The notes under the pieces are model-generated. The model searched no databases, was not told the DNA's origin, and saw nothing but the letters and a program-made list of their open reading frames with translations. The translations under genes were made by a program, and so were the position numbers. A stretch of 64,000 nucleotides of DNA from Casimicrobium huifangae (GTDB lineage Bacteria; Pseudomonadota; Gammaproteobacteria; Burkholderiales; Casimicrobiaceae), in NCBI RefSeq assembly GCF_009746125.1, contig NZ_CP041352.1:3890436-3954435 (forward strand), in the 5' to 3' direction. Positions 5,993 to 50,713 of the stretch are shown piece by piece. How positions within the stretch are numbered: position 1 is the stretch's first letter; each line of letters starts with the position of its first letter.

Positions 5993-6108
5993 TGGCTTTG
6001 CCGGAAAATGGCGTCAGCACTGGGCTTGATGGGCGAAAACGCGAAAAGTCGGCTATTGCTTAAATGTGGCCGTAAGCCCATTGCGAACGCCATTTCAACG
6101 AAAAGCTG
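5993..6108. repeat. Five-box palindromic intergenic element, copy A
   Basis: Between corC and ybeY. The boxes are GGCTTT (outer left, box 5993-6005), GGGCTT (6022), a degenerate centre AAAAGTCGGCT (6044-6054), AAGCCC (6074-6079) and CAACGAAAAGCTG (6096-6108). The spacing from centre to arm and from arm to outer box is about 26 bp each, as in the other four copies (17316, 23489, 38751, 50598). The GGGCTT/AAGCCC arms are perfectly complementary. Confidence 0.75.
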
Positions 6109-6136
6109 TTCGATCAGGGCGGCTGGCCTTGCGGCG

Positions 6137-6643
6137 CTACTCGGTCTCATACGGATTTTTTATACGAAATCGTTTCAGCACCGCTATCTCGATCGCTTCC
6201 ATTGCCGCTGCCTCGGTGGCGTCTTCATGGTCGAAGCCCTGAGCATGCAGCATGCCATGCACCACCATGTGGGCATGATGATCGTGCACTGCCTTCTTCT
6301 GCTCGCGGGCCTCGCGGGCGATCACCGGCGCGCAGATGGCGATGTCGGCCTGGTACGGCTGCGCCGCAGGACGAATGACCAATGACGAATGACGAACGGT
6401 GCTGCCCGCCCTGCTGGTGAGGGGTTCGTGAACAAAGGTCAACACGTTCGTTGCGTAGTCCTTGCCACGGAAATCGCGGTTGAGGGCGCGGCCCTCTTTC
6501 TCATCGACGTAGCGAATGGTCACCACGCCGTCACCGGCACCCGCATTCCCCGCGTGCGCGGCCAGCGCCCAGCGACGCACCTGCGCGCGCGAGGGCAGAT
6601 GCGCCGCCGCTGAGGCAAACTGCACGCTGAGGTGTAGAGTCAT
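6137..6643 (-). CDS. ybeY: Endoribonuclease YbeY with an in-frame repeat insertion
   Basis: Zinc-dependent single-strand endoribonuclease that matures the 16S rRNA 3' end and takes part in ribosome quality control. The metal site is present as HMVVHGMLHAQGFDH near residues 120-135, which supplies the three histidines, and the RGKDYATNVLTF strand precedes it. At 168 residues it is about 18 longer than usual. The extra residues lie between NVLTF and the ADIAICAPV strand (roughly 71-98), and residues 83-94 are encoded by a heptad repeat, giving the peptide VRHSSLVIRP. The insertion is in frame, falls in a loop and leaves the active site intact, so the enzyme is probably functional. It lies downstream of phoH in one operon. 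Confidence 0.93.
   Translation of the reverse strand: MTLHLSVQFASAAAHLPSRAQVRRWALAAHAGNAGAGDGVVTIRYVDEKEGRALNRDFRGKDYATNVLTFVHEPLTSRAGSTVRHSSLVIRPAAQPYQADIAICAPVIAREAREQKKAVHDHHAHMVVHGMLHAQGFDHEDATEAAAMEAIEIAVLKRFRIKNPYETE
6364..6396. repeat. GACGAAT heptad repeat, copy 3, inside ybeY
   Basis: The tract lies wholly within the ybeY coding region. Its 32 nt at 6364-6395 are identical to the reverse complement of 6731-6762, which is a recent-looking duplication in inverted orientation 335 bp away. Confidence 0.85.
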
Positions 6644-6671
6644 GGCGTGAGCACCTCTGCTTTACAGCGGC

Positions 6672-6703
6672 GAGGACGAAAGACGAATGACGAGTGACGA
6701 AAA
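6672..6703. repeat. GACGAAT heptad repeat, copy 4
   Basis: Units GACGAAA, GACGAAT, GACGAGT, GACGAAA between phoH and ybeY. It is inverted relative to copy 5, which lies 27 nt further on, so the two could pair as a long stem in the phoH-ybeY transcript. Confidence 0.75.
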
Positions 6704-6729
6704 TCACATCGCCAAGTCCGCGCACCCAT

Positions 6730-6762
6730 GTCGTCATTCGTCATTGGTCATTCGTCCTGCGG
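6730..6762. repeat. GACGAAT heptad repeat, copy 5
   Basis: Reverse-oriented tract just downstream of the phoH stop. 32 nt are an exact inverted copy of the tract inside ybeY. Confidence 0.85.
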
Positions 6763-6772
6763 CGAACAGCCG

Positions 6773-7810
6773 CTAACTGTTATCCCGCGCGCTTTGCCGT
6801 TCATAGGCGTTCACAATCTTCTGCACCAGCGGATGCCGCACAACGTCCACGCTGGTGAAACGGGTGAAGGCAATGCCTTTGACACCACCGAGCACATGCT
6901 GGGCGTCAATCAGGCCGCTCTTCTGGCTCTTCTGCAGATCAATCTGCGTCGGGTCGCCGGTGACCACCGTCTTGGTGCCAAAGCCGATGCGCGTCAAAAA
7001 CATCTTCATCTGCTCGGGCGTGGTGTTCTGCGCCTCGTCGAGGATGATGAAGGCGCCGTTCAGCGTGCGCCCGCGCATGAAGGCAAGCGGCGCCACCTCA
7101 ATAGTGCCGCGCTCCATGAGCTTGGTTGTCTTCTCGAAGCCCATCAGGTCAAACAGCGCGTCGTACAACGGGCGCAGGTACGGGTCCACCTTCTGGATCA
7201 GATCACCGGGCAGAAAGCCTAGCCGTTCGCCCGCCTCCACCGCCGGGCGCACCAGCACGATGCGCTTGATCAGGTCGCGCTCGAAGGCGTCCACTGCGCA
7301 GGCAACGGCAAGGTAAGTCTTGCCGGTGCCGGCCGGGCCGATGCCGAAGGTGATGTCGTGGTCGCGAATGTTCTGCAGGTAGGTCAGCTGCGTTGGTGTG
7401 CGTGCCGTCAGATCGGCGCGCTTCACCTTCAGCGGAATGGCACCAGCAGCAGCCTCCAGCGCGGCAAACTCTTCAGCGAGTTTCGCTTTTGCCGCAGCGT
7501 CGTCTTCGCCTTCCGACGCATCGCCGGAACTGATCGGCAGCCGTAGCTCGGTCAGCGTCAACTCGACATCGTCATCACTCAAGTCGCGCTTGCTGCCGCG
7601 CACAACGTAGCGGAAGCGCTCAATCGCCTTTTTCGCCGCCTGCGTTGCCGCCGATTCACCACTGATGGTGAACTGCGCCATGCGCCGCCGGATGGTGACG
7701 GCAAAGGCGGCCTCAATGCGGCGAAGATGATCATCCATCGCACCACAGACAGTGGCGAGCGTGGCGTTGTCGATGGGCTCGAGCGACAGGTCGAGCGAAG
7801 AAGTACTCAA
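6773..7810 (-). CDS. phoH: PhoH-like ATPase (YbeZ)
   Basis: A 345-residue PhoH/YbeZ-family P-loop ATPase, probably an RNA helicase-like partner of YbeY. It has an N-terminal KH-like segment (about 10-75), then Walker [12 protein letters not shown] and Walker [18 protein letters not shown], plus the family motif [16 protein letters not shown]. The start codon is TTG at 7810. The next in-frame ATG, 24 codons in, would remove the [16 protein letters not shown] segment that aligns with the E. coli YbeZ N-terminus, so the TTG is preferred, though less certain. First gene of the visible phoH-ybeY-corC-lnt-glyQS run. Confidence 0.92.
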
Positions 7811-7884
7811 AGCGGGATGCGGTGATCGGAAAGCCCCGTATTTTCAGGGTTTTGCGCGTTCACCGCAAACTGCGGCCCGCGCTG

Positions 7885-9624
7885 CTACATGCAGGCGCGA
7901 TAAATCTCGGCGATCGACACGTTGCCGGTGCGCGCCTGTTCGACGCCGTTTACCGGCAGCGGAATCATGCCGCTTTCGACGGCAAGGTGGCGGAACTCGT
8001 CGCTGGCCACGCCTTCGGCGACGCGGCCGCGAATCTGATCATTCATCACCATCAATTCGTAGATCGCCATGCGCCCGGCAAAGCCCGTGAAATGGCATTG
8101 CTCGCAGCCGGCCCCACGCAGGAACTTCTCGCCCGGTTTGAGTCCCAGGTTTTCGGCAAGCAGCGGGTCGATCTTTTCTTCGACCCGGCGGTGCGGGCAA
8201 TTCTTGCGCACCAGCCGCTGCGCCAGCACACCGATCACCGCCGAGCGGATCATGTAAGGCGCGATGCCGATCTCCAGCAGGCGCACCAGCGTGCTCGCCG
8301 CATCGTTGGTGTGCAACGTGCTGAACACCAGATGGCCTGTGAGCGCGCTCTCCACCGCGATCTTGCAGGTTTCGAGATCGCGCATTTCACCGATCATGAT
8401 CACATCAGGGTCGTGCCGCAAGATGTGCCGCAGCGCCTGCGGGAAGCCGAAATTGATCTGTGGCAACAGTTGAATCTGCCGGGTCTTGCCAAGCTCGTAC
8501 TCAATCGGGTCTTCGACCGTGATGATGTTGACGTTTTCCTTCTTCACCGCCTGCAGTGCGGCGTAAAGCGTCGTGGTCTTGCCGGAGCCGGTCGGACCGG
8601 TCACCAGAATGATGCCGTAGCTGCGGCGGATCAGGTCGAGAAAGCGCGCCTTGTCACTGTCCTTGAAGCCAATCTCGTCAACCGAACGGAGACCGGCGCT
8701 CTTGTCGAGGATGCGGATCACCACGCTTTCGCCGTACTGCACCGGAATGATCGAAATGCGCAGGTCGATCGGCTGCTCGCCGACATCCAGCCGGATGCGG
8801 CCATCCTGCGGCAGCCGACGTTCAGTGATATCCAGGCTGGACAAAATCTTGATGCGGCTGACCACCGCCGGCAACAGCGCGGCGCGCAGACTGCGCATTG
8901 GCACCAGCGAGCCGTCGATGCGATAGAGCACCTCGAACTCGTGCTTGCCGGGGCGGATGTGCACGTCGGACGCGCGCATGCTGGCCGCCTCATGCAGCAG
9001 CGTATCGACCAGATTGACGATTGGCGCCCGCTTGGCGACGTGCTCGGCATCGCGCCAGAGCCGCTCGTCGTCCTGCTCGGCGTGGCGCTCCTGCTCCAGC
9101 GCCAGCTCGGTCAGGGCGCGCAGCTCCTCCGCCTCCTGCGCGGTGCGATAGAGCCGGTTGATGGCTTCATCAATCTGCACCCCACTGGCGCGAACGAAGA
9201 CGAAATGGCGCTGCAAGGCAAAGCGGAGCACGGTCAGTGCGTCGTCGTCGAGCAGATCAGACACGGCCAGCACCACCGCATCGCGCCAGCGCATCACCGG
9301 CACCACGCGATAGCGCTCCACCACGGCGCTGGTCAGCAGCGCGGCAATCGCCGGAGTGCTATCGAAATGGGTGAGGTCCACCTTGGGAACGTCACGGATC
9401 GCATGCAACGTCTGCTTCGCCACCTCCAGATTGGGCGGGGGCGACTTGCTGCCGGCCGTGGTCGTCACCAGCAGGCGCGCACGCTCAACGTCCTGCCGGC
9501 TCGGCGGCTCACCACGCTTGAGCAACTGGCCGTAGGCGGAGCTTGACTCCGCGTGCGCGTCCAGCAGCGACTCCAGTTCGTCGGGATTGACCACGACCCG
9601 TTCCGGCAATTGTTCTCGCAGCAT
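7885..9624 (-). CDS. GspE/PilB-family type II secretion or type IV pilus ATPase
   Basis: A 579-residue hexameric secretion ATPase. The N-terminal ~150 residues resemble the MshEN/GspE N-domain. The C-terminal ATPase domain shows Walker A GPTGSGKTTTLY, the Asp box region VEDPIEYEL, Walker B MIGEMRDLETCKIAVES and the His box TGHLVFSTLHTNDA. The zinc-finger loop is incomplete: the first pair reads CPHR instead of CxxC, while the second CEQC is intact. No pilin, GspD/F or PilC genes are nearby, so it is an orphan ATPase that may serve a machine encoded elsewhere. Choosing between gspE and pilB is not possible from the sequence alone. Confidence 0.85.
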   Translation of the reverse strand: MLREQLPERVVVNPDELESLLDAHAESSSAYGQLLKRGEPPSRQDVERARLLVTTTAGSKSPPPNLEVAKQTLHAIRDVPKVDLTHFDSTPAIAALLTSAVVERYRVVPVMRWRDAVVLAVSDLLDDDALTVLRFALQRHFVFVRASGVQIDEAINRLYRTAQEAEELRALTELALEQERHAEQDDERLWRDAEHVAKRAPIVNLVDTLLHEAASMRASDVHIRPGKHEFEVLYRIDGSLVPMRSLRAALLPAVVSRIKILSSLDITERRLPQDGRIRLDVGEQPIDLRISIIPVQYGESVVIRILDKSAGLRSVDEIGFKDSDKARFLDLIRRSYGIILVTGPTGSGKTTTLYAALQAVKKENVNIITVEDPIEYELGKTRQIQLLPQINFGFPQALRHILRHDPDVIMIGEMRDLETCKIAVESALTGHLVFSTLHTNDAASTLVRLLEIGIAPYMIRSAVIGVLAQRLVRKNCPHRRVEEKIDPLLAENLGLKPGEKFLRGAGCEQCHFTGFAGRMAIYELMVMNDQIRGRVAEGVASDEFRHLAVESGMIPLPVNGVEQARTGNVSIAEIYRACM

Positions 9625-9768
9625 GTGTTCATACGCGCAGACGCCCTCACCCGCGCGACCTCCGTGTCTTCTCTTGCCAGTATGCCCGTTTTCCGTCGCG
9701 AATGGACGAAGCCGACGTGACGCGCATCAAGGCAGGCTGGAATCTGGCTGTGAACGGTAGCGGATACC

Positions 9769-11604
9769 TCAGGGCGCGACATTCATGCCGCAGGCAACAA
9801 GAATCGGGCGAATGCTGGCCCAAGTGCGCCGTGGCGCACCTGGCGCCGCCGCGAGCGCTGCGGCGTCGGTCAATCCGAGCATGGCCCGCAGGAGGACAAG
9901 ACCATCGGTGGTCGGCAGGATCGCGCCATCGCCATCAATGTCCACAGTGCAGCTGGCGGCACTGGCGACGCCAAAATCGAGCGTGTTGCTGTTACCGGAG
10001 AGCGTGCGCAGCACCGTAATCCACAGTTCACTGTTGCCGCTATCCAGACTTATCAGCACATCGGTATCGGCGACCATCGCCGCGCCGTTGAGCCGGACAT
10101 CGGCTGGAGCGGCAGCCGCCGTGTAGTTGCGGACACGCAGCACCGGATTGCGCAGCGTATCGCCTGCTGGCACCGACCAGTTGACCGCCAGCGCATTGCC
10201 CGCCGCGCTCGCCTCCCAGCTACCGTATACCGGGTTCCAGCCCGGCCGCGTCCACGCCTGCGTGTCGCTGCGGCCCACGCCAGCCGCGCCACTCGCTGGA
10301 ACGCTGCCGGTACTCGCAGTAAGCGCGATGCCCGCCGACATCAGGATCGCTTCGTACTCGGCCAGTACCGCCGCCGTCGGGTTCACGCCCTGCGCCGGGT
10401 TGTGCTCGCCCAGTACCACCGCCGTGCTGTAGCTTTTGTAGCGGGGCTGGGTGACCGTCGCGCCCACGTAGTTGTCGTAGCTGGAACGACCGATGGCGCC
10501 AAGTTTGGCGCCCCACGCAAACCGGCGACCGGTAGTGCTGCTGTTGACTTCGAGCCCTGCAACACCCCAGAAGTCGTTCTCAACACTCTGGAACGGCCAG
10601 TCCCACACACAGAACATGCGGTAGCCCTCTGCAGGGCAGGCTTGCCCGGCGGCGCTGGTGGTGCCCTGAAAATTGCCCGAGTAACCACCGTTGCCCGCGT
10701 CATGGGTCGCCAGCAGGCTGGTCTGGACAATACCCATCTGCGCATTGCCACCGTTGACCCAGAGCTGATTGAACGGAATTGCCGCGCGACCGCTGGCTGC
10801 CCAGCTCCAGTTCGCATTCAGGGTAAAGGGCGCGCCGGTGGTGGCAAAGCGCCGCTGGTCGACCGCCCAGGCAATGCCACCGATGGCGCTGCCGGTAACG
10901 CCGGCAAACTCGACTTCGCCGTACGGTCCGCGTGCGTCCCCCTCAATCTGCTCGGCCAGCGGCAGATTGGCCGGCGCTGCAGACCAATCCCAAGTGACCG
11001 TCCAGACCGGATGATCGCGGCCATTGGCGAACAACCACTGGATGGTGACCGGGAGCTGATAGCGGACAAAGGTGTTGCCAGGCGCATGCGGGCCGGAAAC
11101 GCGCGGGTAGGTGGTACGAAACTCGTGAATGGCATGATGCCGCCCTGCGAAACGGACGCTATAAGTACCCGCAAAGCCCCTGCCCAGTGGGCTGTCGTCA
11201 CCAATCCAGCGCTGCAGTTCGCAATACTGCGTGTTCGGTTCCGCCGCGCAGCTCTCGACATAGCGCGCGTGTGAGACAACATAACCAAAACCGCCCGCGC
11301 CACCAGCCGTGGCGTTGACGACGCGGGTGCTGCCACCGTTGAGCACGTAGGTATAGCGGTCAAGGAATCCGCCGCCGGCAACATTGTTGCGGGCAAGAAT
11401 CGCCTGCCGGCTGCGACCCGATGCGTCGGTCCACTGGTAGCCATCGCCAGTGCGCCCGGCATTGCCACTGATACCCTGCGTCACCGAGATCGGGGATATC
11501 TGTGCAAGCACCCCAGCGCACATACCCGCGAGCACCGTAGCCACGGTGCAGCGACTGGCGCGCCAGGTGGGCGACATTCGCCCATTCACTGCATTCATTG
11601 GCAT
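9769..11604 (-). CDS. Exported protein of unknown function with a dockerin-like C-terminus
   Basis: I do not recognise the main body. The 611-residue protein has a basic N-terminus and a hydrophobic stretch (about residues 20-35), consistent with export. The body is rich in G, N, W, Y and T, as in secreted beta-rich proteins, and has paired cysteines around residues 115-125. The last ~70 residues hold a Ca-loop-like DIDGDGAILPTTDG, then LLRAMLG, RRTWASIRPILVACGM, flanked by two cysteines. The same module ends the exported protein at 14554-16104. An AGGGGAG Shine-Dalgarno supports the start. Attachment, sorting or calcium-dependent folding are possible roles for the module; none can be chosen here. 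Confidence 0.7.
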   Translation of the reverse strand: MPMNAVNGRMSPTWRASRCTVATVLAGMCAGVLAQISPISVTQGISGNAGRTGDGYQWTDASGRSRQAILARNNVAGGGFLDRYTYVLNGGSTRVVNATAGGAGGFGYVVSHARYVESCAAEPNTQYCELQRWIGDDSPLGRGFAGTYSVRFAGRHHAIHEFRTTYPRVSGPHAPGNTFVRYQLPVTIQWLFANGRDHPVWTVTWDWSAAPANLPLAEQIEGDARGPYGEVEFAGVTGSAIGGIAWAVDQRRFATTGAPFTLNANWSWAASGRAAIPFNQLWVNGGNAQMGIVQTSLLATHDAGNGGYSGNFQGTTSAAGQACPAEGYRMFCVWDWPFQSVENDFWGVAGLEVNSSTTGRRFAWGAKLGAIGRSSYDNYVGATVTQPRYKSYSTAVVLGEHNPAQGVNPTAAVLAEYEAILMSAGIALTASTGSVPASGAAGVGRSDTQAWTRPGWNPVYGSWEASAAGNALAVNWSVPAGDTLRNPVLRVRNYTAAAAPADVRLNGAAMVADTDVLISLDSGNSELWITVLRTLSGNSNTLDFGVASAASCTVDIDGDGAILPTTDGLVLLRAMLGLTDAAALAAAPGAPRRTWASIRPILVACGMNVAP

Positions 11605-11735
11605 GGCACTCCCCTCATTCTGATCATCGCTGCAGACAACAGGCCTGCACTGCCGCGGGCCGGCGTTTGTTCAGACGGAATTTCGCCGCGCTTTCTGTCA
11701 TGCGCTGTAGTGCGCAACGAGGGGGGGACGGACGC

Positions 11736-14501: not shown

Positions 14502-14553
14502 GCGCCGATTATGCTGCAACGCACAACTACGGCAAACTACGCCCCCAACCTCG

Positions 14554-16104: not shown

Positions 16105-16214
16105 AACGGGTCTCCCTGCGAATCAACAACGGCGAACGTGGCACCGGGAAGGCACAGCGCCACCCCCGAGCAGGCGTCGCAACCCTTCCTTAGCGGATCA
16201 GACGGCAATCTGGC

Positions 16215-17189: not shown

Positions 17190-17315
17190 GAATGATCTGC
17201 GGGATGCAGCCGACTACTATGAGTTCGGCAAAAGCGATGGGAAGCGCAATTTTAATTTGCTGAATCAATCTAACAAAGTACGCCGCGAGCCGTCCATAGC
17301 GTGCGCATGGAGATA

Positions 17316-17432
17316 TGGCTTCTTGCAGAAACGACCGTTGCTAAAGGGCGAAGCGGCGGAAAAACAAAAACTCGACTTTTCCCCAAACCGGCACCTGTGC
17401 CCTTACCCGACGGGCGTTTCAGCAAAAAGCTG
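17316..17432. repeat. Five-box palindromic intergenic element, copy E
   Basis: Between oxyR and the acyltransferase gene. Boxes: TGGCTTCTTGCAG (17316-17328), AAGGGC (17344-17349), centre AAACTCGACTTTT (17368-17380), GCCCTT (17399-17404) and the hairpin CAGCAAAAAGCTG (17420-17432). Box spacing is about 26 bp. AAGGGC and GCCCTT are complementary. The rest of this 260 bp gap holds only the presumed oxyR promoter. Confidence 0.75.
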
Positions 17433-17450
17433 AGGCACCCGTTTTCGCGG

Positions 17451-23426: not shown

Positions 23427-23488
23427 GGCGCAGGTACCAATAGCGTCATGCTTGCAAATGATCTGCCGGAGTGTATCTGTTGCACTGA

Positions 23489-23606
23489 TGGCTTTTTCAT
23501 GAAACCCCCATCAGCTATGGGCTCAAGTCGTCTTTTACTCAAAAGTCGACTTCAGGTAGTTTAGTGCCTTGAGCCCATATTCAATGGTCGTTTGATGCAA
23601 AAGTTG
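23489..23606. repeat. Five-box palindromic intergenic element, copy D
   Basis: Best-preserved copy, between divergent pth and CoA-transferase genes. Boxes: TGGCTTTTTCATG (23489-23501), ATGGGCTCAAG (23517-23527), centre AAAAGTCGACTT (23541-23552), CTTGAGCCCAT (23568-23578; an 11 bp perfect inverted match to the left arm) and GATGCAAAAGTTG (23594-23606, itself part of a GATGCAAAAGTTGCATC hairpin). Box centres fall at 0, plus/minus 26.5 and plus/minus 52.5 bp. Confidence 0.8.
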
Positions 23607-23680
23607 CATCGACGAAATTCGGATCTTCACCTACGATTGTTGCACCGAGAAGCAGTGGTCATTGAGCAAGGAGCATGGGC

Positions 23681-29138: not shown

Positions 29139-29147
29139 GGCTTGCCG

Positions 29148-31028: not shown

Positions 31029-31194
31029 GACGATCCTGACGAATCGGGCCCTCCGCCCGACGGTGGGTGGTCCCGCTGGCAAGGCTCAGGTGGCACGGGT
31101 CAGGCGATCGTCAACGACGGTGCATGCGCCCGGCACCGCGCATCCCCGCGCAGTGGGCAATGATCCGTCGTCCGAGGAAGGCGACAGAAAAGCC

Positions 31195-31390
31195 GGGCCG
31201 GTCTCCGGACTCGTCGCCGCAGTTTGGTTGCGCCTTCCCGGGAGTGGACTCCCAGTGGCATGGCTGAATCGGAAACGATACAGCACGGCAACCAGCGTTG
31301 ATGCGACTTACCGTTGCGGGGGCAGTAGCGGCTTTATCGTGCTGGCACGATGCACCGCTTTCCCGTTTCACTTGATGGCAACCGAAGAAT
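31195..31390 (-). promoter_or_regulatory. Cobalamin (adenosylcobalamin-type) riboswitch
   Basis: The btuB leader contains the B12-box order on the minus strand: AACGGGAA, ACTGCCCCCGCAACGGTAAG, GCCACTGG with CCGGGAAGGCG, and GAGTCCGGAGACCGGCC, with matching stems such as GGGAGT/ACTCCC. It lies about 170 nt upstream of the btuB start. By analogy, bound cobalamin represses btuB-btuF expression. The leader also faces the divergent ABC-transporter gene. The ends given are approximate. Confidence 0.93.
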
Positions 31391-31453
31391 CTGGTCACCA
31401 GCAAGCACCTTGCTTCGTCGTGCAGTTTATCAGTGGCATGCAACAATTTGCCC

Positions 31454-38692: not shown

Positions 38693-38750
38693 GGCTGCTC
38701 TGTCACGCGACGTATTGCCATTACCCAAGGGCGATCGTCGCTGACACTAT

Positions 38751-38867
38751 CAGCTTGATCCGCAAAGCCGCATTCAAATTGGGCTTCACGGCCCATTCGC
38801 CACCAAGTCGACTTTCCGCATAATGACCGCCTAGCCCTTAGCTAATGGGCCCTCTGACAAAAAGATG
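38751..38867. repeat. Five-box palindromic intergenic element, copy C
   Basis: Between porin 2 and the DUF1289 gene. Boxes: CAGCTTGATCCGC (38751-38763), GGGCTT (38781), centre AAGTCGACTTT (38805-38815), AGCCC (38833-38837) and TGACAAAAAGATG (38855-38867). Spacing of about 26 bp is preserved, although the outer boxes are more diverged than in D and B. Confidence 0.7.
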
Positions 38868-38953
38868 ATACGGCTATCGACGTGAAGTCATCGGCAACTT
38901 TTGCACGTTGCGCCGCGCATCAGGGCCGCTGACGCTATCCCACAAGGCGGTTG

Positions 38954-39971: not shown

Positions 39972-39995
39972 GGTTAGCTGGCGAACCAATTTTGA

Positions 39996-40033: not shown

Positions 40034-40073
40034 GGGAGGATAAAGGCCGGCATGCGCTGCGGGCGCCAGGCCA

Positions 40074-40982: not shown

Positions 40983-41001
40983 GCTGACCTCGCTTCGCTG
41001 A

Positions 41002-41928: not shown

Positions 41929-41994
41929 GCCGCTATTTTGCCGTGCGTGACGCGGTCACGGTCGCGCGCGGGCCATTGCCGCACTATGATTGGC

Positions 41995-42161: not shown

Positions 42162-42173
42162 CCGACACCCTGA

Positions 42174-43634: not shown

Positions 43635-45652
43635 GCGGTGGCCTTCGCCTCGGCCAGCGCGACCAGTTCGGCGCCTTCCTTGACCTGTTCCTTCGCCGCG
43701 AAGTAGATCGCCTCGACGGCACCGTCGAATGGTGCCACGATGGTGTGCTCCATCTTCATCGCCTCCATGATGATCAGCGGCTGGCCCTTCTTGACCGTGT
43801 CGCCGACCTTGACCAGCACGCTGACCACTGATCCCGGCATCGGGGCAACGAGATGGCCGCCATGACCGTCCTCGGACTCGGGCGGCGCGTAGCGGTCGAC
43901 GGCGTCAAACTCAAACCGCTCGCCTGCGAGCAGCACGACCCGGTGCCCGCCCGAGCGCAGCACGCGCGCGCCGCGCTGCGCGTCGCCCAGCGTGAGGGTG
44001 ATGCGCTCGCCATCGATGTCGGCGCGGGCGCGCAGTTCGCGGCCGGCGATGCGGATGCGATAGCCGTCGCCGTCCGCGATCACGCTGACGGCCAGGCGCT
44101 GCTCGCCCTGTGCGTAGTCGAAGTCGATGCCGCAATCGGGCTGGTTTGGCCAGAACGCATCGGCCAGCGCCCACGGCGACGAAGCTTTGCCGGCGCGACG
44201 CGCGGCGTCCTGCGCCACCGCACGCGCGGCGGCGGCCTCGACCAGCGCGCAGGCCGCGAGTGCCGCGTCGCTCGGCACCGGTAGCGGCGGCAGCAGCGCG
44301 TCGGCGTGACGCGCGATGAAACCGGTATCGATCTCCCTGGCCGCGAACGCGGGGTGCCGCGCAACGCGCTGCAGGAACTCCACGTTGTTGGTGAAGCCGA
44401 CGACGGCATAGTCGTCGAGCGCCAGCGCCAGGCGTTGCAGCGCCTGCTCGCGATTGTCGCCATGCACGATCAGCTTGGCGATCATCGGGTCGTAGTGTGG
44501 CGTGATCGCATCGCCCTCGCGCACGCCGGTGTCGATGCGCACGTCGGCGTTGGTCGCGGGCGCGCGCAGCAGATCGATCGGGCCGATCGCGGGCAGGAAC
44601 TGGTTGCGCGGATTCTCGGCGTAGACGCGCGCCTCGAAGGCATGGCCGTCGATGCGCAGCTCGTCCTGCAGCTTGGGCAGGCGTTCGCCCGAAGCGACGC
44701 GCAACTGCCACTCGACGAGGTCGAGCCCGGTGATCATCTCGGTGACCGGGTGCTCGACCTGCAGCCGCGTGTTCATCTCCATGAAGTAGAAGCGGCCCGA
44801 GGTCGCAAAGTCATGCTCGGCGATGAACTCGACGGTGCCCGCGCCGACGTAGCCTACGGCGTGTGCCGCGGCGCAGGCGGCTTCGCCCATCTGGCGGCGA
44901 CGCGCCTCGGTCATGCCGGGCGCGGGCGCTTCTTCGACGACCTTCTGGTGGCGGCGCTGCAGCGAACAATCGCGCTCGAACAGGTAGACGCAGTGACCGA
45001 GCTCGTCGGCGAACACCTGGATCTCGATGTGGCGCGGGCGCTGCAGATAGCGTTCGATCAACACATTGTCGTCGCCGAACGAGTTCTTCGCCTCGCGCTT
45101 GGCCGATGCCAGCGCCGCCGCAAAGTCGGCCTCGCTCTCGGCCACCTTCATGCCCTTGCCACCGCCGCCAGCGCTGGCCTTGATCAGCACCGGAAAGCCG
45201 ATGCGCTTTGCTTCGGACGCGAGCAAGGCCTCGCTCTGGTCGCTGCCGTGATAGCCCGGCACCAGCGGCACGCCGGCCTTCTCCATCAGGCGCTTCGATT
45301 CGGCCTTGAGCCCCATCGCCTCGATCGCAGCAGGCGGCGGTCCGATGAACACGATGCCGGCGTCGGCGCACTGACGCGCGAACGATTCGTTCTCGGACAG
45401 GAAGCCGTAGCCGGGATGGATCGCCTGCGCGCCCGTGAGCTTGGCGATCTCGAGCACCTTGTCACCGCGCAGGTAGGACTCTTTCGGCGCAGCGCCACCG
45501 ATGCAATACGCCTCGTCGCACGCGGCAACATGCATCGCATCACGATCGGCTTCGGAGAACACCGCGACGGTCTGGATGCCCATGCGGCGCGCGGTACGGG
45601 CGACGCGAACAGCAATCTCCCCACGATTGGCGATGAGAATTTTGGCGAACAT
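43631..45652 (-). CDS. liuD: 3-Methylcrotonyl-CoA carboxylase, biotin-carboxylase/biotin-carrier alpha subunit
   Basis: A 673-residue acyl-CoA carboxylase alpha subunit: biotin carboxylase domain (1-~450; GGGGKGMK ATP loop, EMNTRLQVEHPVTE, KANRGE-type start ILIANRGEIAVRV), a BT-like linker (~450-600) and a C-terminal biotinyl domain with EAMKMEHTI (biotinyl lysine). With the neighbouring beta subunit it carboxylates 3-methylcrotonyl-CoA in leucine degradation. Gene order alpha-hydratase-beta agrees with the liu pathway rather than propionyl-CoA carboxylase. It is 3 nt from the hydratase gene. Confidence 0.92.
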   Translation of the reverse strand: MFAKILIANRGEIAVRVARTARRMGIQTVAVFSEADRDAMHVAACDEAYCIGGAAPKESYLRGDKVLEIAKLTGAQAIHPGYGFLSENESFARQCADAGIVFIGPPPAAIEAMGLKAESKRLMEKAGVPLVPGYHGSDQSEALLASEAKRIGFPVLIKASAGGGGKGMKVAESEADFAAALASAKREAKNSFGDDNVLIERYLQRPRHIEIQVFADELGHCVYLFERDCSLQRRHQKVVEEAPAPGMTEARRRQMGEAACAAAHAVGYVGAGTVEFIAEHDFATSGRFYFMEMNTRLQVEHPVTEMITGLDLVEWQLRVASGERLPKLQDELRIDGHAFEARVYAENPRNQFLPAIGPIDLLRAPATNADVRIDTGVREGDAITPHYDPMIAKLIVHGDNREQALQRLALALDDYAVVGFTNNVEFLQRVARHPAFAAREIDTGFIARHADALLPPLPVPSDAALAACALVEAAAARAVAQDAARRAGKASSPWALADAFWPNQPDCGIDFDYAQGEQRLAVSVIADGDGYRIRIAGRELRARADIDGERITLTLGDAQRGARVLRSGGHRVVLLAGERFEFDAVDRYAPPESEDGHGGHLVAPMPGSVVSVLVKVGDTVKKGQPLIIMEAMKMEHTIVAPFDGAVEAIYFAAKEQVKEGAELVALAEAKATA

Positions 45653-45655
45653 AAG

Positions 45656-46444
45656 CTATTCCTTCACCCAGTCCGGCCGCCGCTTCGCAAGGAAAGCGCC
45701 AATGCCTTCCTTCGCTTCGGGCGTCGAGCGGATCTGGGCGATGCGCTCGATGGTGTCTTCCATGAGCTCGTCGTCGATCGGCTTCTGTGCGACGGCCTGG
45801 ATCAGGTTCTTGGCAGCCTCGATGGCTTTGGGGCCGTTGCCGAGCAGCACGGTGCAGAGACCGGCAATCATCTCGTCCATCGCGTCGATTGACGGTGCCA
45901 GGTCATGCAGCAGGCCGATGCGGTAGGCCTCCGATCCCGAGAAGCGCTCGGCCGTGATGAAGTAGCGATGGGCATAGCGAGCGCCCATGGCCTCGATCAC
46001 GTACGGGCTGATCACAGCCGGGATGATGCCCAGCTTGACCTCGGACAATGCGAACTGCACGTCAGACACGCCGATCGCGATGTCGGCCGCTGCCACGACG
46101 CCGACACCGCCGCCAAACGCATTGCCTTGCACGCGCGCGATCACAGGCTTGGGGCAGGCATAGATCGCGTTGAGCATCAGCGCGAGCTCGCCCGCGTCCT
46201 CGCGGTTCTGGTCCTCGTCGTACTCGGACGCACGTTTCATCCAGTTGAGATCGGCACCAGCGCAGAAGCTCTTGCCCTCGGCGGCGATGATGATCACGCG
46301 CACCGATTCATCTTCACCCAGATCGCGAAAGGCCTCGATCACCTCACGGATCATGGTCTCGTCAAAGGCGTTGTGCACTTCGGGGCGGTTGAACGCCACC
46401 ATCGCCACGCCACGCGCATCGCGCTCAATTTTCAGTGTTTTCAT
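45656..46444 (-). CDS. liuC: Methylglutaconyl-CoA hydratase (crotonase family)
   Basis: A 262-residue crotonase-fold hydratase. Oxyanion-hole segments are IIAAEGKSFCAGADLNWMK and VQGNAFGGGVGVVAAADIAIG; the ALSEVKLGIIPAVISPYVI region contains the catalytic glutamate. Position between the two 3-methylcrotonyl-CoA carboxylase genes identifies it as the hydratase that makes HMG-CoA from methylglutaconyl-CoA. It is separated from each neighbour by only 3 nt, so it is in the same operon. Confidence 0.9.
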   Translation of the reverse strand: MKTLKIERDARGVAMVAFNRPEVHNAFDETMIREVIEAFRDLGEDESVRVIIIAAEGKSFCAGADLNWMKRASEYDEDQNREDAGELALMLNAIYACPKPVIARVQGNAFGGGVGVVAAADIAIGVSDVQFALSEVKLGIIPAVISPYVIEAMGARYAHRYFITAERFSGSEAYRIGLLHDLAPSIDAMDEMIAGLCTVLLGNGPKAIEAAKNLIQAVAQKPIDDELMEDTIERIAQIRSTPEAKEGIGAFLAKRRPDWVKE

Positions 46445-46447
46445 CTG

Positions 46448-48055
46448 CTACATCCTGAACACGCCAAACCGTGTGTCCTCAATCGGCGCATTCAGACTCG
46501 CTGACAGCCCAAGACCCAGCACCCGCCGCGTGTCCGCCGGATCGATGATGCCGTCGTCCCACAGACGTGCCGTCGCGTAGTACGGATGGCCTTCGCGCTC
46601 GTACTTTTCGCGGATCGGTGCCTTGAACGCATCTTCCTCGTCCTTGGACCACGCGCCCCCCTTGGCCTCGATGTTGTCGCGGCGCACGGTCGACAGCACG
46701 CTAGCTGCCTGCTCGCCGCCCATCACGCTGATGCGCGCGTTGGGCCACATCCACAGGAAGCGTGGCGAATAGGCGCGGCCGCACATGCCGTAGTTGCCGG
46801 CGCCGAAGCTGCCGCCGATGATCACCGTGAACTTGGGTACCCTGGCGCAGGCGACCGCCGTGACCATCTTGGCGCCGTTGCGCGCGATGCCCTCGTTCTC
46901 GTACTTGCGGCCAACCATGAAGCCCGTGATGTTCTGCAGGAAGACGAGCGGGATCTTGCGCTGGCAGCACAGCTCGATGAAGTGCGCGCCCTTGAGCGCC
47001 GACTCCGAGAACAGCACGCCGTTGTTGGCGACGATGCCGACCGGCATGCCGTAGATGCGCGCAAAGCCGGTCACCAGCGTCGTGCCGTAGCGCGGCTTGA
47101 ACTCGTCGAACTCGCTGCCATCGACGATGCGCGCGATGACTTCGCGCACATCGAACGGCTTGCGCGTGTCGGTCGGGATCACGCCGTAGAGTTCATGCGG
47201 ATCGTACAGGGGCTCGACGCTCTCACTCATCGCGAGTTGCGCCGGCTTGACCGTGTTGAGGTGACCGACGACCTGGCGCGCCATGCCCAGCGCATGCGGA
47301 TCGTTCTGCGCCAGTTGATCGGCTACGCCCGACAGCCGCGTGTGCACGTCGCCACCGCCGAGGTCCTCGGCGCTCACCACCTCGCCAGTCGCGGCCTTGA
47401 CCAGCGGCGGGCCGGCCAGGAAGATCGTGCCCTGATTCTTGACGATGATCGACTCATCGCTCATCGCGGGCACATAGGCGCCACCGGCCGTGCACGATCC
47501 CATCACCACGGCGATCTGCGCGATGCCGTCGGCGCTCATCGTCGCCTGGTTGTAGAAGATGCGGCCGAAGTGCTCGCGGTCGGGGAATACCTCGTCCTGA
47601 TTGGGCAGGTTGGCGCCACCCGAATCGACCAGATAGATGCACGGCAGGCGGTTCTGCGCAGCAATCTCCTGCGCGCGCAGATGCTTCTTGACGGTCATCG
47701 GGTAATAGGTGCCGCCCTTGACTGTCGCGTCGTTGGCCACGATCACGCACTCACGCCCGCTCACGCGACCGATACCGGTGATGATGCCGGCGCCCGGTGA
47801 CTCGTTGCTGTACATCTCGTACGCCGCCAGCGCGGACAGTTCGAGGAACGGCGAGCCCGGATCGAGCAGCTGCTTGACGCGGTCACGCGGCAGCAGTTTG
47901 CCGCGCGCGGTGTGTTTGGCACGCGGACCTTCGCCGCCGCCGAGCGCCGCGGCGGCATGCTTGGCGCGCAAGTCGTCGACGAGCGCCTGCATGGCGGCAG
48001 TCGACGCGACAGTCGCTGCGTCGCGGAGATTCAGTTTCGATTCAATGACTGGCAT
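46448..48055 (-). CDS. liuB: 3-Methylcrotonyl-CoA carboxylase, carboxyltransferase beta subunit
   Basis: A 535-residue carboxyltransferase, the partner of the biotin-carrying alpha subunit. Features: [24 protein letters not shown] near the start, [39 protein letters not shown] and [22 protein letters not shown], the last typical of the methylcrotonyl-type beta subunit, and [22 protein letters not shown]. Its C-terminus ([23 protein letters not shown]) is standard for MccB. Upstream on the strand is the isomerase gene, 9 nt apart. Confidence 0.94.
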
Positions 48056-48064
48056 GCGCGAACC

Positions 48065-48673
48065 TTAGTATTTCCAGCCGCCGCGCTTGAGCCATTGCTC
48101 GAGCATCGGCAGTCGGTCGGCGCCCCAGAACGGTTCGCCATCGACAATGAAAAACGGTGAACCGAATACGCCCCTGGCGATGGCCGCCTCGACCTCGCCC
48201 TTGAGCTGGTTCTTGATCTCGTCTGTCTGCGTCGCAGCGATCACCTCGTCGGCGCTGTAGCCGAGCCCGGCCGCGATGTCACCCACGACGTCGAGCTTGC
48301 TGATGTCGCGATCACCGCGAAAAAACGCCCGATACAGCTCGAGCGCGAACTTCTTCGCGTGCGCCGGGTGGTTCTTCTGCATCCACAGCACGGCCCGCGA
48401 TGGGTTTTGCCCCGCGATCGGGAACAGGCTGGGCGCCTTGTACGGAATGCCATAAAACGCCGCGCTGCGCCGGAAGTCGTTCTCGGAGTACGGCCCCTTC
48501 ATCGGCGCCTGCGTCAGCGGCTGCCCGCCGGTGGACTTGAACACCACGCCGAGGAGGATCGGATGCCAGTTGATGGCACGCCCGCAGCGTTGCCCGAGCT
48601 CCTCGATCATCTCGGCGGCGAGATAGCCGTAAGGGGAGGAGAAGTCGAAGTAGAAGTCGATTGCTGATGCCAT
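48065..48673 (-). CDS. 2-Hydroxychromene-2-carboxylate isomerase-like protein (kappa GST/DsbA fold)
   Basis: A 202-residue protein of the DsbA-like HCCA isomerase family. The start IDFYFDFSSPYGYLAAE carries a serine where DsbA has its first redox cysteine, as in kappa-type GSTs, and WHPILLGVVFKSTGGQPL and GVFGSPFFIVDGEPFWGADRL follow. The family isomerises hydroxychromene carboxylates in naphthalene degradation, but members appear in many acyl-CoA catabolic operons where their substrate is unknown. It is one nucleotide from the next upstream gene. Confidence 0.82.
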   Translation of the reverse strand: MASAIDFYFDFSSPYGYLAAEMIEELGQRCGRAINWHPILLGVVFKSTGGQPLTQAPMKGPYSENDFRRSAAFYGIPYKAPSLFPIAGQNPSRAVLWMQKNHPAHAKKFALELYRAFFRGDRDISKLDVVGDIAAGLGYSADEVIAATQTDEIKNQLKGEVEAAIARGVFGSPFFIVDGEPFWGADRLPMLEQWLKRGGWKY

Positions 48674-49042
48674 TTACTTGTCCTGCTTGACGCCAAATTC
48701 CTCGATGACCTCGATGCTGCCGACGATGTTGCGGTTGAGCTCGTCGATATCCTCGGCCGGTATCCACCATTCGGTGTGATGCGATGCGCCGACCTGCTGC
48801 ACCTCGTAGCGGTCAACGAACTCGCGACGTACTGCGAAGCGCGTCACGGCGCCGTAACCGCTGTCGCGCACGTTCCACTGCTGCGCAATCTCGGCCGCGT
48901 ACTTCTGGTTGGTCACCGGATAGAAGATGGGCTGGTCCGGTAGCCGCGGCGGCCACAGCTTGTCACCCGAATCGTGCACGAGCTGAAGCTCGACCGGCCC
49001 GACGGGCCGGTACATGGTGACGATGGCGTCGGCAGCGGTCAT
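48674..49042 (-). CDS. Conserved small protein found with acyl-CoA catabolism genes
   Basis: A 122-residue protein. TMYRPVGPVELQLVHDSG, WPPRLPDQPIFYPVTNQKYA and QWNVRDSGYGAVTRFAV are recognisable as parts of a conserved family that databases often label ADP-ribosylation/crystallin J1, although I see no ADP-ribosylglycohydrolase motifs and do not endorse the label. It overlaps the upstream acyl-CoA dehydrogenase gene by 4 nt and abuts the isomerase gene, so it belongs to the operon. Function unknown. Confidence 0.75.
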   Translation of the reverse strand: MTAADAIVTMYRPVGPVELQLVHDSGDKLWPPRLPDQPIFYPVTNQKYAAEIAQQWNVRDSGYGAVTRFAVRREFVDRYEVQQVGASHHTEWWIPAEDIDELNRNIVGSIEVIEEFGVKQDK

Positions 49043-50190
49043 GCGGCCTCGTGCGCGCCCGTCGCCAGCCCGCGCCCGATCAGGATCTTCTGGATGTCGC
49101 TGGTGCCTTCATAGATCTGGCACACGCGAACGTCACGATAGATGCGTTCGACCGGAAAGTCGGTGACGTAGCCATAGCCACCATGAATCTGGATCGCGTC
49201 GGAGCAGATGCGCTCGGCCATTTCGCTGGCGAACAGCTTGGCCATCGCGGCCTGTGTCAGGCAGGGCACGCCTGCGTCCTTGAGGCTCGCGGCGTGATGA
49301 ATCAACTGCCGCGCCGCTTCGATCTGTGTTGCCATCTCTGCGAGCTTGAACTGCACCGACTGATGCTCGAAGATCGGCTTGCCGAAGGCCTCGCGCTCTT
49401 TCGCATAACGCAGCGCCGCCTCGAACGCTGCGCGCGCCATGCCCACGCTTTGTGACGCGATGCCGATGCGGCCGCCTTCGAGCCCGGCCAGCGCGATCTT
49501 GTAACCGGCGCCCGGCTCGCCAATCATCAGGCTCGCGGGCACGCGGCAGTTCTCGAACAGGATCTGCGCGGTGTCGCTCGAATGCTGGCCCAGCTTGTCC
49601 TCGATGCGTGCGACCGTGTAGCCGGGAGTCTTGGTCGGCACGATGAATGCGCTGATGCCGCGTTTGCCGGCCGCCTTGTCGGTCACCGCCATCACGATCG
49701 CCATGTCGGCGTTCTTGCCCGATGTGATGAACTGCTTGACGCCGTTCAGCACATAGTGATCGCCGTCCAGGGTCGCGGTCGTGCGCAGACCCGAGGCGTC
49801 GGACCCGACGTGCGGCTCGGTCAGACAAAACGCGCCGAGCATCTCGCCGCGCGCCAGCGGCACCAGCCAGTCCTGCTTCTGCTGCTCGCTCGCGAAGCTC
49901 ATCATGATCGAGCACACGGGGCAGTTGTTGACCGACACCACCGTGCTGGTGCCACCATCGCCGGCCGCGATCTCTTCGAGGATGATCGCGAGCGTCATGT
50001 AGTCGAGCCCGGCGCCGCCATACTGGTCGGGCACGGCGATGCCGTAGCAGCCGAGTTCGGCGAGGCCCTTGAGTTCGGCCGCAGGAAATTCGTGTGACTT
50101 GTCCCACGCCGCGGCCTTGGGCGCGATGCGTTCCTGCACGAATGCGCGGACGCTGTCGCGCACCATGCGCTGGTCTTCGTTAAGCAGCAT
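49039..50190 (-). CDS. Acyl-CoA dehydrogenase
   Basis: A 383-residue FAD-dependent acyl-CoA dehydrogenase. Recognisable parts are the FAD/substrate segments AFCLTEPHVGSDASGLRTTA and FITSGKNADM, the IQIHGGYGYVTDFPVERIYRD region, and the catalytic base position in QIYEGTSDIQKILIGR. It resembles short/medium-chain enzymes more than isovaleryl-CoA dehydrogenase; the latter is encoded separately at 54394. Its place at the head of the liu operon suggests use in branched-chain or short acyl-CoA oxidation. Confidence 0.88.
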   Translation of the reverse strand: MLLNEDQRMVRDSVRAFVQERIAPKAAAWDKSHEFPAAELKGLAELGCYGIAVPDQYGGAGLDYMTLAIILEEIAAGDGGTSTVVSVNNCPVCSIMMSFASEQQKQDWLVPLARGEMLGAFCLTEPHVGSDASGLRTTATLDGDHYVLNGVKQFITSGKNADMAIVMAVTDKAAGKRGISAFIVPTKTPGYTVARIEDKLGQHSSDTAQILFENCRVPASLMIGEPGAGYKIALAGLEGGRIGIASQSVGMARAAFEAALRYAKEREAFGKPIFEHQSVQFKLAEMATQIEAARQLIHHAASLKDAGVPCLTQAAMAKLFASEMAERICSDAIQIHGGYGYVTDFPVERIYRDVRVCQIYEGTSDIQKILIGRGLATGAHEAA

Positions 50191-50205
50191 GTGCGGCTCG
50201 ATTCC

Positions 50206-50562
50206 TCATGATTGTTCGCCGCCCTGCGGCCCCCAGAACACGACCCAGGTGGCGAAGTCGTGACTGAAATCGGTAAATCGGTGATCCTGGCCAGCTGCAA
50301 CAAAGAACACATCCCCCGATGCGCATGAGTGCGCCACCGCTTCGATGGTTAACGTCGCGTTGCCGCGCTGGATGAAGTAGAGCTCGTCCTGAGCGTGCGG
50401 TTTCTGGCGGTCGAGTTCGTTCGGCGCAAACAGCTCGACACTCATTGAACCATGAGCCAGCGCGCGGACGAACGGCTCGCCTGCGGGCCAGCGGTCGCTG
50501 GGGCTGCGTGGCAACTGCGCCAGCAGTGGCGCGAGGCTTGCCTTGACGCGGGATTCGCTCAC
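50206..50562 (-). CDS. Cupin-domain protein
   Basis: A 118-residue single-cupin protein. The first cupin motif is seen in KPHAQDELYFIQRGNATL, with one histidine and a glutamate in place of the second histidine, and the second motif in GDVFFVAAGQDHRFTD. Small cupins of this kind bind a metal, but no substrate can be inferred. It is upstream of the acyl-CoA dehydrogenase gene by 15 nt and probably starts the operon. Confidence 0.8.
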   Translation of the reverse strand: MSESRVKASLAPLLAQLPRSPSDRWPAGEPFVRALAHGSMSVELFAPNELDRQKPHAQDELYFIQRGNATLTIEAVAHSCASGDVFFVAAGQDHRFTDFSHDFATWVVFWGPQGGEQS

Positions 50563-50597
50563 CGATCGCCTCTCGGTACCGCAAGTGCCAGCACCAG

Positions 50598-50713
50598 TGA
50601 CTTTTCTGCAAAAGCGTTACCAGATGAGGGCTTGCACGAAAAATCAGGAAAAGTCGACTTTGGCGAATTTTTCGCCTGAGCCCACATCAAACAAGGATTA
50701 CATCGAAAAGCTG
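50598..50713. repeat. Five-box palindromic intergenic element, copy B
   Basis: Between the cupin and SDR genes. Boxes: TGACTTTTCTGCA (50598-50610), GGGCTT (50628), centre AAAAGTCGACTTT (50649-50661), AGCCC (50679-50683) and CATCGAAAAGCTG (50701-50713). Box centres lie at 0, plus/minus 25.5 and plus/minus 51.5 bp. The right box matches copy A at 12 of 13 positions. Confidence 0.8.

What the first reader, a model, noticed from the sequence alone, without database searches (positions are those of the whole stretch)
5993..50713. Five copies of an undescribed ~117 bp five-box palindromic intergenic element
Copies at 5993-6108, 17316-17432, 23489-23606, 38751-38867 and 50598-50713 share five short boxes: GGCTTT-type outer box, GGGCT arm, a centre based on AAGTCGACTT, AGCCC arm, and an outer box CANCRAAAAGCTG. 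The right-hand boxes are the reverse complements of the left-hand ones, and box centres fall at about 0, plus/minus 26 and plus/minus 52 bp (within 1-1.5 bp in all five). The spacers between boxes are not conserved. Conserved boxes, variable spacers and helical-scale spacing fit a protein-binding array or a non-autonomous mobile element better than a plain terminator. All copies lie in gene gaps, one per gap, roughly one per 12 kb. I know of no named family that matches.
Basis: partly seen in the sequence, partly recalled or inferred. Interest (0 to 1): 0.9.

Follow-up and report, generated by a model that had tools for sequence, protein, structure and literature searches.

The report
Evenly spaced chromosome-wide DNA docking sites
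This bacterium's chromosome carries hundreds of mirror-symmetric DNA sites of about 122 letters between genes, spread far more evenly than chance at about one per 12,000 letters, and they look like docking sites for an unknown protein that organises the chromosome.

Summary
Confirmed, and larger than reported. The five window copies are real (44.6-77.2 bits; next best 2.2). In 1.664 Mb of the 4.47-Mb genome I found 135 copies above 20 bits, about 360 genome-wide by extrapolation; controls gave none. Each is a dyad-symmetric ~122-bp site of fixed geometry: TCGA centre, A/T-only steps at ±13.5, GGGC arms at ±27.5, CTTTT boxes at ±54; spacers are free.

Copies are evenly spaced: CV 0.54 and 0.66, against 0.95-0.98 for random gene gaps. 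Sixteen of 17 congeners carry the element; one of 47 other family genomes gave two weak rows. A congener with another consensus keeps the frame. Of 14 elements in collinear blocks of a relative at ~82% DNA identity, 12 have an own partner in the same gap, though spacers have diverged.

Mobile-repeat, RNA-hairpin and terminator readings failed tests; the E. coli gyrase motif fits in part. Best reading: docking sites for an unidentified DNA-bending or -wrapping protein that organises the chromosome. Binding and function are inferred.

The parts
5991..6111 (.). Element copy 1; dyad centre 6050/6051 (AAGTCGGCTA), arms 6022-6026 and 6075-6079, outer boxes 5993-6000 and 6101-6108; between genes for a CorC/CBS-domain protein and YbeY
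   Evidence: flanking Pfam
17315..17434 (.). Element copy 2; centre 17373/17374 (AACTCGACTT), arms 17346-17350 (GGGCG) and 17398-17402 (TGCCC), outer boxes 17316-17323 and 17425-17432; between a LysR-type regulator gene and a WS/DGAT gene
23488..23608 (.). Element copy 3; centre 23547/23548 (AAGTCGACTT), arms 23519-23523 and 23572-23576, outer boxes 23489-23496 and 23599-23606; between peptidyl-tRNA hydrolase (-) and a CoA-transferase family III gene (+)
38747..38871 (.). Element copy 4; centre 38809/38810 (AAGTCGACTT), arms 38781-38785 and 38833-38837, outer boxes 38751-38758 and 38860-38867; between convergent porin and TatD DNase genes
50595..50715 (.). Element copy 5; centre 50655/50656 (AAGTCGACTT), arms 50628-50632 and 50679-50683, outer boxes 50598-50605 and 50706-50713; the 3' end of a short-chain dehydrogenase gene (50740-51414, -) faces it, an acyl-CoA dehydrogenase gene (49039-50190, -) lies further left

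Best explanation
Each element is a docking site for a two-fold symmetric DNA-binding complex that bends or wraps about 122 bp. It makes base-specific contacts at the centre (TCGA), at the GGGC arms (±27.5) and at the CTTTT outer boxes (±54), and reads DNA shape (a narrow A-tract minor groove) at ±13.5 and perhaps ±44.5. About 360 such sites lie in gene gaps, usually nearer to stop than to start codons, one per about 12 kb in the two stretches mapped. The most likely job is architectural: anchoring or insulating chromosome domains at the ~10-kb scale. That would explain the even spacing, since two nearby sites are redundant and a long empty stretch is costly, and the one observed case in which a site seems to have shifted by about 7 kb between relatives. 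Shown: the anatomy, copy number, even spacing, positional conservation, genus restriction and drift between species. Inferred: that a protein binds, that the DNA is wrapped, and that the role is architectural. The binder is not identified.
For: Fixed geometry: best arm offset 0 or +1 bp in 258 of 270 half-elements. G006, with a different consensus (arms CGCCCAATTTAATTGGGCG, centre TTATCGA), has its boxes at the same coordinates (computed on the 44 sites of exactly 128 bp and 30 bits or more); in split-half tests 63 held-out sites exceed 20 bits against 1 in reversed and 0 in Markov controls, and lengths 128 and 127 alone hold 55 of the 63 although 96-140 was allowed. Indirect readout: step -14/-13 is AA 74, TT 77, AT 16, TA 3, other 2. 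Even spacing: CV 0.538 (n=72) and 0.655 (n=63) against 0.977±0.103 and 0.968±0.115, 0 of 5000 draws each; with gene-orientation classes matched, 0.952±0.099 (0 of 5000) and 0.963±0.114 (p 0.0004); pairs under 4 kb 4 and 3 against about 19-20 and 16 expected. G006: CV 0.601 against 0.946±0.101, 0 of 5000. Selection on boxes: 12 of 14 elements of relative G011 in collinear blocks have a counterpart here; in 11 of these 12 pairs box identity is 0.68, spacer identity 0.34 against 0.29 for non-orthologous pairs. No functional theme in the 10 window genes tested near the copies, which speaks against a regulon.
Against: No binder found: gyrA looks ordinary by profile score and length (12 of 13 genomes whole, G013 in two pieces; the C-terminal domain was not aligned), and HU/IHF-family genes number three in each of 15 genomes, with and without the element. 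Mean spacing differs between species (about 12 kb here, about 6 kb in G006), so no universal domain length is fixed. G016 lacks the element and G008 has only about a dozen sites, so it is dispensable in small genomes. Evenness is weaker in some subsets: the 1.5-2.3 Mb block with only copies of 50 bits or more gives p 0.08; G011 contigs give p 0.045 and 0.16; one held-out half of G006 has CV 0.85. Eleven of 66 G006 sites fall inside predicted genes. A weak left-right spacer complementarity exists (0.353 against 0.334±0.009). Some pairs of copies share local stretches (82% over 66 bp, 90% over 41 bp, first 40 rows seen).
Confidence: 0.53

Rival explanations
1. Strong gyrase (type II topoisomerase) sites acting as topological insulators: gyrase wraps the ~122 bp, cuts at the central TCGA 4-bp stagger and absorbs positive supercoils past gene ends.
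For: The E. coli gyrase motif is 130 bp, symmetric, centred on a 4-bp stagger, with phased GC content, and cleavage sites are enriched downstream of transcribed units (passages and one section of PMC6379681). The element is ~122 bp, dyad-symmetric, centred on TCGA, closer to stop codons than to starts (tandem gaps: median 25 against 65 bp), one per ~12 kb. In G006 the flanks have power near 10-10.25 bp almost equal to their top period.
Against: The gyrase motif has a 10.75-bp GC period in its flanks; the own element's flanks peak at 7.25-7.5 bp (power 0.24) with 0.09 at 10.75; in G006 it is 0.09 at 10.75 against a top of 0.12 at 7.5, which decides nothing. Gyrase is universal but the element is genus-restricted with near-invariant GGGC boxes; gyrA is ordinary by profile score and length in element-bearing and other genomes.
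Confidence: 0.18
2. A MITE- or REP-like repeat spread by a transposase, with target immunity giving the even spacing.
For: High copy number, intergenic sites, symmetric ends; some positions gained or lost between G000 and G011; some pairs of copies share local stretches of up to 90% over 41 bp.
Against: No pair of 135 copies above 68% ungapped identity, mean 44%, against a column-shuffled maximum of 62%; spacers unconserved while boxes are kept; 12 of 14 positions shared with G011; the one G011-only site aligned in detail shows no precise insertion.
Confidence: 0.1
3. An RNA-level element in 3' untranslated regions (terminator or mRNA stabiliser).
For: Elements sit near stop codons; whole-element RNA folding is stronger than shuffles (mean z -2.1, half below -2); 51 of 252 half-elements pair GCCC with GGGC in all four positions and 78 in three; separate terminators are found less often in element gaps (convergent 4 of 76 gene ends against 8 of 94; tandem 0 of 66 against 16 of 290).
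Against: A folding excess is expected from palindromic boxes; spacer pairing barely exceeds permuted pairs; 3 of 135 elements terminator-like; fixed bp-level spacing and A/T steps that avoid TA are DNA features.
Confidence: 0.07
4. A self-recognition signal for DNA uptake or transfer, analogous to uptake signal sequences, which are also abundant and described as relatively even in Haemophilus.
For: Even spread and intergenic placement; A/T steps beside a core; USS spacing about 1 kb and 'relatively even' (passages of PMC7811141).
Against: 122 bp with dyad symmetry is far longer than a USS (31 bp in that paper's model); density about tenfold lower.
Confidence: 0.06

Closest known systems
E. coli gyrase binding motif / BIME-2 strong gyrase sites
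   Same: Length (130 bp), symmetry about a 4-bp stagger, phased GC content, position past gene ends
   Different: E. coli motif is degenerate with a 10.75-bp flank period (PMC6379681, passages and section 23); here near-invariant boxes, and in the own genome no 10.75-bp peak (G006 undecided)
REP / BIME repeats
   Same: Intergenic, often between convergent or co-directional genes, downstream of coding regions (PMC3733652, passages)
   Different: REPs are 20-40 bp palindromes; here 122 bp, no hairpin covariation to speak of, evenly dispersed rather than clustered
ERIC / RU-1 (127 bp) enterobacterial repeats
   Same: Similar length, intergenic, MITE-like (start of abstract of PMC2759123; equation of RU-1 with ERIC is recalled)
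   Different: ERIC copies are recalled as similar along their whole length; here spacers are free and no near-identical copies were found
Nucleoid-organising site systems (MatP/matS, SlmA/SBS, Noc), recalled, not searched
   Same: Many sequence-specific sites over the chromosome read by one architectural protein
   Different: Those sites are recalled as short (about 13 bp) and confined to or excluded from a macrodomain; here 122 bp multi-box sites at similar density in both stretches examined
Unexplained spaced motif ATAGCT(N)22CAAAAG in Polaromonas naphthalenivorans
   Same: Same 27-bp offset between AGC and AAAAG as in the right half here; mostly intergenic, 34 of 125 copies between convergent genes (section 13 of PMC5217627)
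   Different: A full-dyad pattern gave 0-1 match per genome in 398 other order genomes, but that pattern also misses congeners with a drifted consensus, so it is a weak negative; the half-site hits listed in family f49 (capped list) show no inverted pairs; homology not shown

Membership tests
MITE / ERIC-type mobile repeat | Copies alike along their whole length, including recent near-identical copies | tested here: not met
   Max ungapped pairwise identity 0.68, mean 0.44 among 135 copies; local stretches up to 90% over 41 bp exist
MITE / ERIC-type mobile repeat | Precise insertion with target-site duplication against an empty site | tested here: inconclusive
   One G011-only site aligned; flanks diverge before the edges, no precise junction
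REP / BIME | 20-40 bp imperfect palindrome forming a stem-loop | tested here: not met
   Element ~122 bp; spacer complementarity 0.353 vs 0.334±0.009
Intrinsic terminator | GC-rich stem followed by a T run | tested here: not met
   3 of 135 elements
Gyrase binding motif (E. coli type) | ~130 bp, symmetric about a 4-bp stagger | tested here: met
   Dyad to ±61; central TCGA exact in 110 of 135
Gyrase binding motif (E. coli type) | 10.75-bp GC period in both flanks | tested here: inconclusive
   Own: top flank period 7.25-7.5 bp (power 0.24), 0.09 at 10.75, so not met; G006: top 0.12 at 7.5, 0.10 at 10-10.25, 0.09 at 10.75, undecided
Gyrase binding motif (E. coli type) | Bound and cut by gyrase | not testable with these tools
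   Needs Topo-Seq or in vitro cleavage
Rfam RNA families | Match at gathering score | tested here: not met
   Only a cobalamin riboswitch in the window, outside the elements
Nucleoid-organising site system (works like) | Many copies over the chromosome, conserved position, no regulon theme | tested here: met
   neighbours of the five window copies only
Nucleoid-organising site system (works like) | A dedicated DNA-binding protein | not tested
   No binder search was feasible beyond gyrA and HU/IHF

The most novel reading that the evidence does not exclude
A dedicated, sequence-defined chromosome-domain system in bacteria: hundreds of nucleosome-sized DNA-wrapping sites placed at near-regular intervals by selection, with the DNA code co-evolving with its reader so that species have their own consensus on one fixed geometry.
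Probability: 0.4. Interest if true: 0.95.

Novelty: categorically new. Interest (0 to 1): 0.85.

Why it matters
Bacterial chromosomes are thought to be divided into ~10-kb supercoiling domains, generally without a known sequence that marks the borders (recalled). An element that is evenly spaced on this scale, conserved in position and tied to one genus offers a direct handle: pull down its binder, delete neighbouring copies and read contacts and supercoiling. The drift of the boxes on a fixed geometry is also a natural record of protein-DNA co-evolution across the 16 element-bearing congeners.

Tried and rejected
Mobile element: rejected on pairwise divergence, shared positions and lack of a precise empty site. 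RNA hairpin and terminator: rejected, with the counter-signs named under that rival. Regulon: the ten window genes tested near the copies are unrelated. IHF site: the outer box partly fits the recalled IHF consensus, but its best-conserved bases fall in the unspecified part of that consensus, and no extra HU/IHF gene marks the genus. Gyrase: kept as first rival; the period test is against it in the own genome and undecided in G006, gyrA looks ordinary. On re-checking I found that I had overstated the G006 result, and moved the odds from 0.15 to 0.18 for gyrase and from 0.55 to 0.53 for the best explanation. Terminus depletion: suggested by the capped list, not borne out (one per 12.7 kb in 1.5-2.3 Mb against one per 12.0 kb); copies scoring 60 bits or more are rarer there (19 against 33). 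Where the terminus lies was not determined. Large element-free stretches hold 13-25 gaps of 60 bp or more in the four longest; their genes were not identified and no cause was found. Viral spread: one exact match in the viral collection, in a 40% GC contig, which scores 15 bits and looks like a terminator. Literature: the exact core string is in 80 papers, the ten listed unrelated by title; the other listings named no such element. A Comamonadaceae half-site with the same offset was followed without showing kinship.
Full report
Observation. The five copies are real and are the only ones in the window. With all filters off, a sequence-only profile returns them at 44.6-77.2 bits on both strands and nothing else above 2.2 bits. 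The profile (R1) was built from 43 strict copies: those in 40 fetched loci and three in the window, 17 of them also entered reverse-complemented (60 rows). Four of the 47 strict genome sites were not fetched for it.

How many. The strict pattern has 47 sites in the 4,465,898-bp genome, from 0.08 to 4.42 Mb, and none for its reversed control. A relaxed pattern without the centre (CTTTT-N24-GCT-N45-51-AGC-N24-AAAAG) has 62, control 0. In two contiguous blocks totalling 1.664 Mb an nhmmer profile finds 72 and 63 copies above 20 bits. That is one per 12.0 and 12.7 kb, about 360 by extrapolation. Reversed and third-order Markov versions of both blocks give 0 above 20 bits; the best control score is 11.1. 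The genome-wide profile search scored only 150 of 933 candidates, so it gives no total.

Anatomy (135 copies, both halves). The central TCGA is exact in 110 of 135; AAGTCGACTT in 37. The outer columns were tallied on the 252 of 270 halves with a recognisable arm, aligned on that arm, which inflates the arm columns: GGG 95-99%, C 96%. CTTTT at -56 to -52 is at 78-92%, and A at -45/-44 at 82-92%. Positions -14/-13 in halves with an exact GGGC at offset 0 are AA 74, TT 77, AT 16, TA 3, other 2. Allowing AA, TT and AT but avoiding TA is the mark of a narrow A-tract groove (established knowledge). The best arm offset is 0 or +1 bp in 258 of 270 halves. GC content alternates with a top period of 9.5 bp across the whole site. 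Most spacer columns carry little information. Left and right spacers are barely more complementary within a copy than between copies (0.353 against 0.334±0.009; outer half 0.440 against 0.422±0.010), so the constraint is on double-stranded DNA rather than on an RNA stem. Whole-element RNA folding does exceed shuffles (mean z -2.1), as palindromic boxes would give.

Placement. 68 of 72 copies in the first block fall outside predicted genes. The gene finder is my own and makes errors: it flagged window copy 2 as inside a gene although Pfam-supported genes flank it, and it put copy 3 in a tandem gap, whereas Pfam-supported genes there are divergent. Over both blocks 41 lie in convergent, 70 in tandem and 24 in divergent gaps. 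Baseline gaps of 100 bp or more are 87, 371 and 144. In tandem gaps the median distance to the upstream stop is 25 bp and to the downstream start 65 bp.

Even spacing. Spacing CV is 0.538 (n=72) and 0.655 (n=63). Random draws of the same number of gaps give 0.977±0.103 and 0.968±0.115, with 0 of 5000 draws as low in either block. Matching the gene-orientation classes gives 0.952±0.099 (0 of 5000) and 0.963±0.114 (p 0.0004). Neighbours closer than 4 kb number 4 and 3, against about 19-20 and 16 expected. With copies of 40 bits or more p is 0 of 5000 and 0.004; with 50 bits or more 0 of 5000 and 0.08. G006, a second species, shows CV 0.601 against 0.946±0.101, 0 of 5000 (66 sites in 400 kb, 11 of them inside predicted genes). 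Its held-out halves give 0.64 and 0.85 with fewer sites. G011 contigs give p 0.045 (24 sites) and 0.16 (10 sites).

Distribution. The pattern with arm gaps narrowed to N18-21/N17-21, searched over one genome for each of 84,980 species, hits 92 stretches, all in six metagenome-assembled genomes labelled Proteobacteria, Betaproteobacteria, Burkholderiales or Deltaproteobacteria (the last by one stretch). R1 finds 15 of 17 congeners and 0 of 47 other family genomes. R2, built from G006, finds 16 of 17 and one of 47 others with two weak rows (G076, best E 0.0012). In 300 order genomes R2 finds five congeners and three single weak matches in genomes of 1.5-2.0 Mb with 535-1637 first-look candidates, which I take as chance (only 11 candidates per genome were scored, under the stricter filters). 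Among small congeners G008 has 24 rows, 11 sites in the part listed, about a dozen in all, and G016 none convincing (3 rows, best E 0.06).

Drift on a fixed frame. In G006 (55% GC) a dyad profile iterated from the own half-site converges on arms CGCCCAATTTAATTGGGCG and centre TTATCGA. The boxes lie at the same coordinates: C -56, GCCC -42 to -39, GGGC -29 to -26, A/T at -14/-13, TCGA at the centre. The half-profile seeded the distance from outer box to arm; the total length, the centre and the ±13.5 step were not seeded, though the column table used only the 44 sites of exactly 128 bp. Of all 79 iterated sites 68 are 127-129 bp long. Because the profile was trained on G006 itself, I split the data: 63 sites in the held-out halves exceed 20 bits, against 1 in reversed and 0 in Markov sequence. 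So the sequence code changes between species while the frame does not.

Vertical inheritance and turnover. G011 shares 82-83% DNA identity with the own genome in the two main aligned sets. In two collinear blocks it has 14 elements above 18 bits; 12 have an own element in the same gap (one of these scores only 18.3 bits here). Conversely 11 of 14 own elements above 20 bits have a G011 partner. In 11 of the 12 pairs (the 18.3-bit one left out) box identity is 0.68 (0.56 for non-orthologous pairs) and spacer identity 0.34 (0.29). Neutral positions are thus near saturation and the boxes are kept. One own-only and one G011-only site lie about 7 kb apart, as if a site had moved while spacing was kept; this is a single case. 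No two of 135 own copies exceed 68% ungapped identity; the column-shuffled maximum is 0.62. Local matches of 82% over 66 bp and 90% over 41 bp exist, so there is some sub-family structure, but no near-identical copies were found.

Mechanism. Two-fold symmetry, near-invariant contacts at fixed helical positions, shape-only contacts at ±13.5 and about 122 bp of constrained DNA point to a symmetric complex that bends or wraps the site. Even spacing near 12 kb over the mapped stretches, placement near gene ends and no common function of the window neighbours point to an architectural role. The E. coli gyrase motif is the nearest described footprint (130 bp, symmetric, 4-bp stagger, phased GC, downstream of operons; passages and one section of PMC6379681). 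Its 10.75-bp flank period is not the peak in the own genome and undecided in G006, and gyrA is ordinary by score and length. I therefore hold a dedicated binder as most likely, and gyrase as the first rival. The binding protein itself is not identified.

Novelty. REP/BIME, ERIC/MITE, terminator and Rfam readings each fail a tested feature; the gyrase motif is met in part. The searches listed no matching element; they cover open-licence PMC papers only. I file the element as categorically new while noting that it works like a nucleoid-organising site system; if its reader proves to be a known protein it becomes a new variant.

Noticed in passing
window 31179-31422 (-): Cobalamin riboswitch (Rfam RF00174, 88.8 bits), the only Rfam match in the window at the gathering score.
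   Followed up: no
G011:C16:457-16720 against own 1871883-1989668: A rearranged segment in G011 has block ends within about 50 bp of elements at c16:12737 and c16:16709, whose gene ends in the own genome also carry elements (1989668 and 1871964). Elements may mark tolerated or preferred breakpoints.
   Followed up: no
own genome, halves such as L021, L040, L042: The outer half has two alternative forms: GCCCATT-type and TGGCGTC-type (10 of 252 halves contain exact TGGCGTC). Two discrete forms may mean two readers or two lineages.
   Followed up: partly
genomes of family f49 (e.g. G777, G577, G465): Half-site ATAGCT-N22-CAAAAG, reported as an unexplained motif in Polaromonas, is over-represented in a few genomes of a family I take to be Comamonadaceae (G777: 39 matches, control 2), often in the form ATAGCTGCTTGCGCTTG..AGCGCAAAAG.
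   Followed up: partly
plasmid records listed: A partial copy of that half-site lies under features annotated DUF1010 on many enterobacterial plasmids (20 of 1759 records listed), which suggests that some DUF1010 annotations are translations of a repeat.
   Followed up: no
own 1746746-1790116, 1917130-1954643, 4204086-4241499, 4241499-4273142: Element-free stretches of 32-43 kb with 13-25 gaps of 60 bp or more; two of them have lower GC (0.587-0.588), as recent acquisitions might.
   Followed up: partly
own 3514440 and 4204085, 76-191 bp from the element centres: A 92-bp match (74%) in the flanks of two elements, outside the elements themselves.
   Followed up: no
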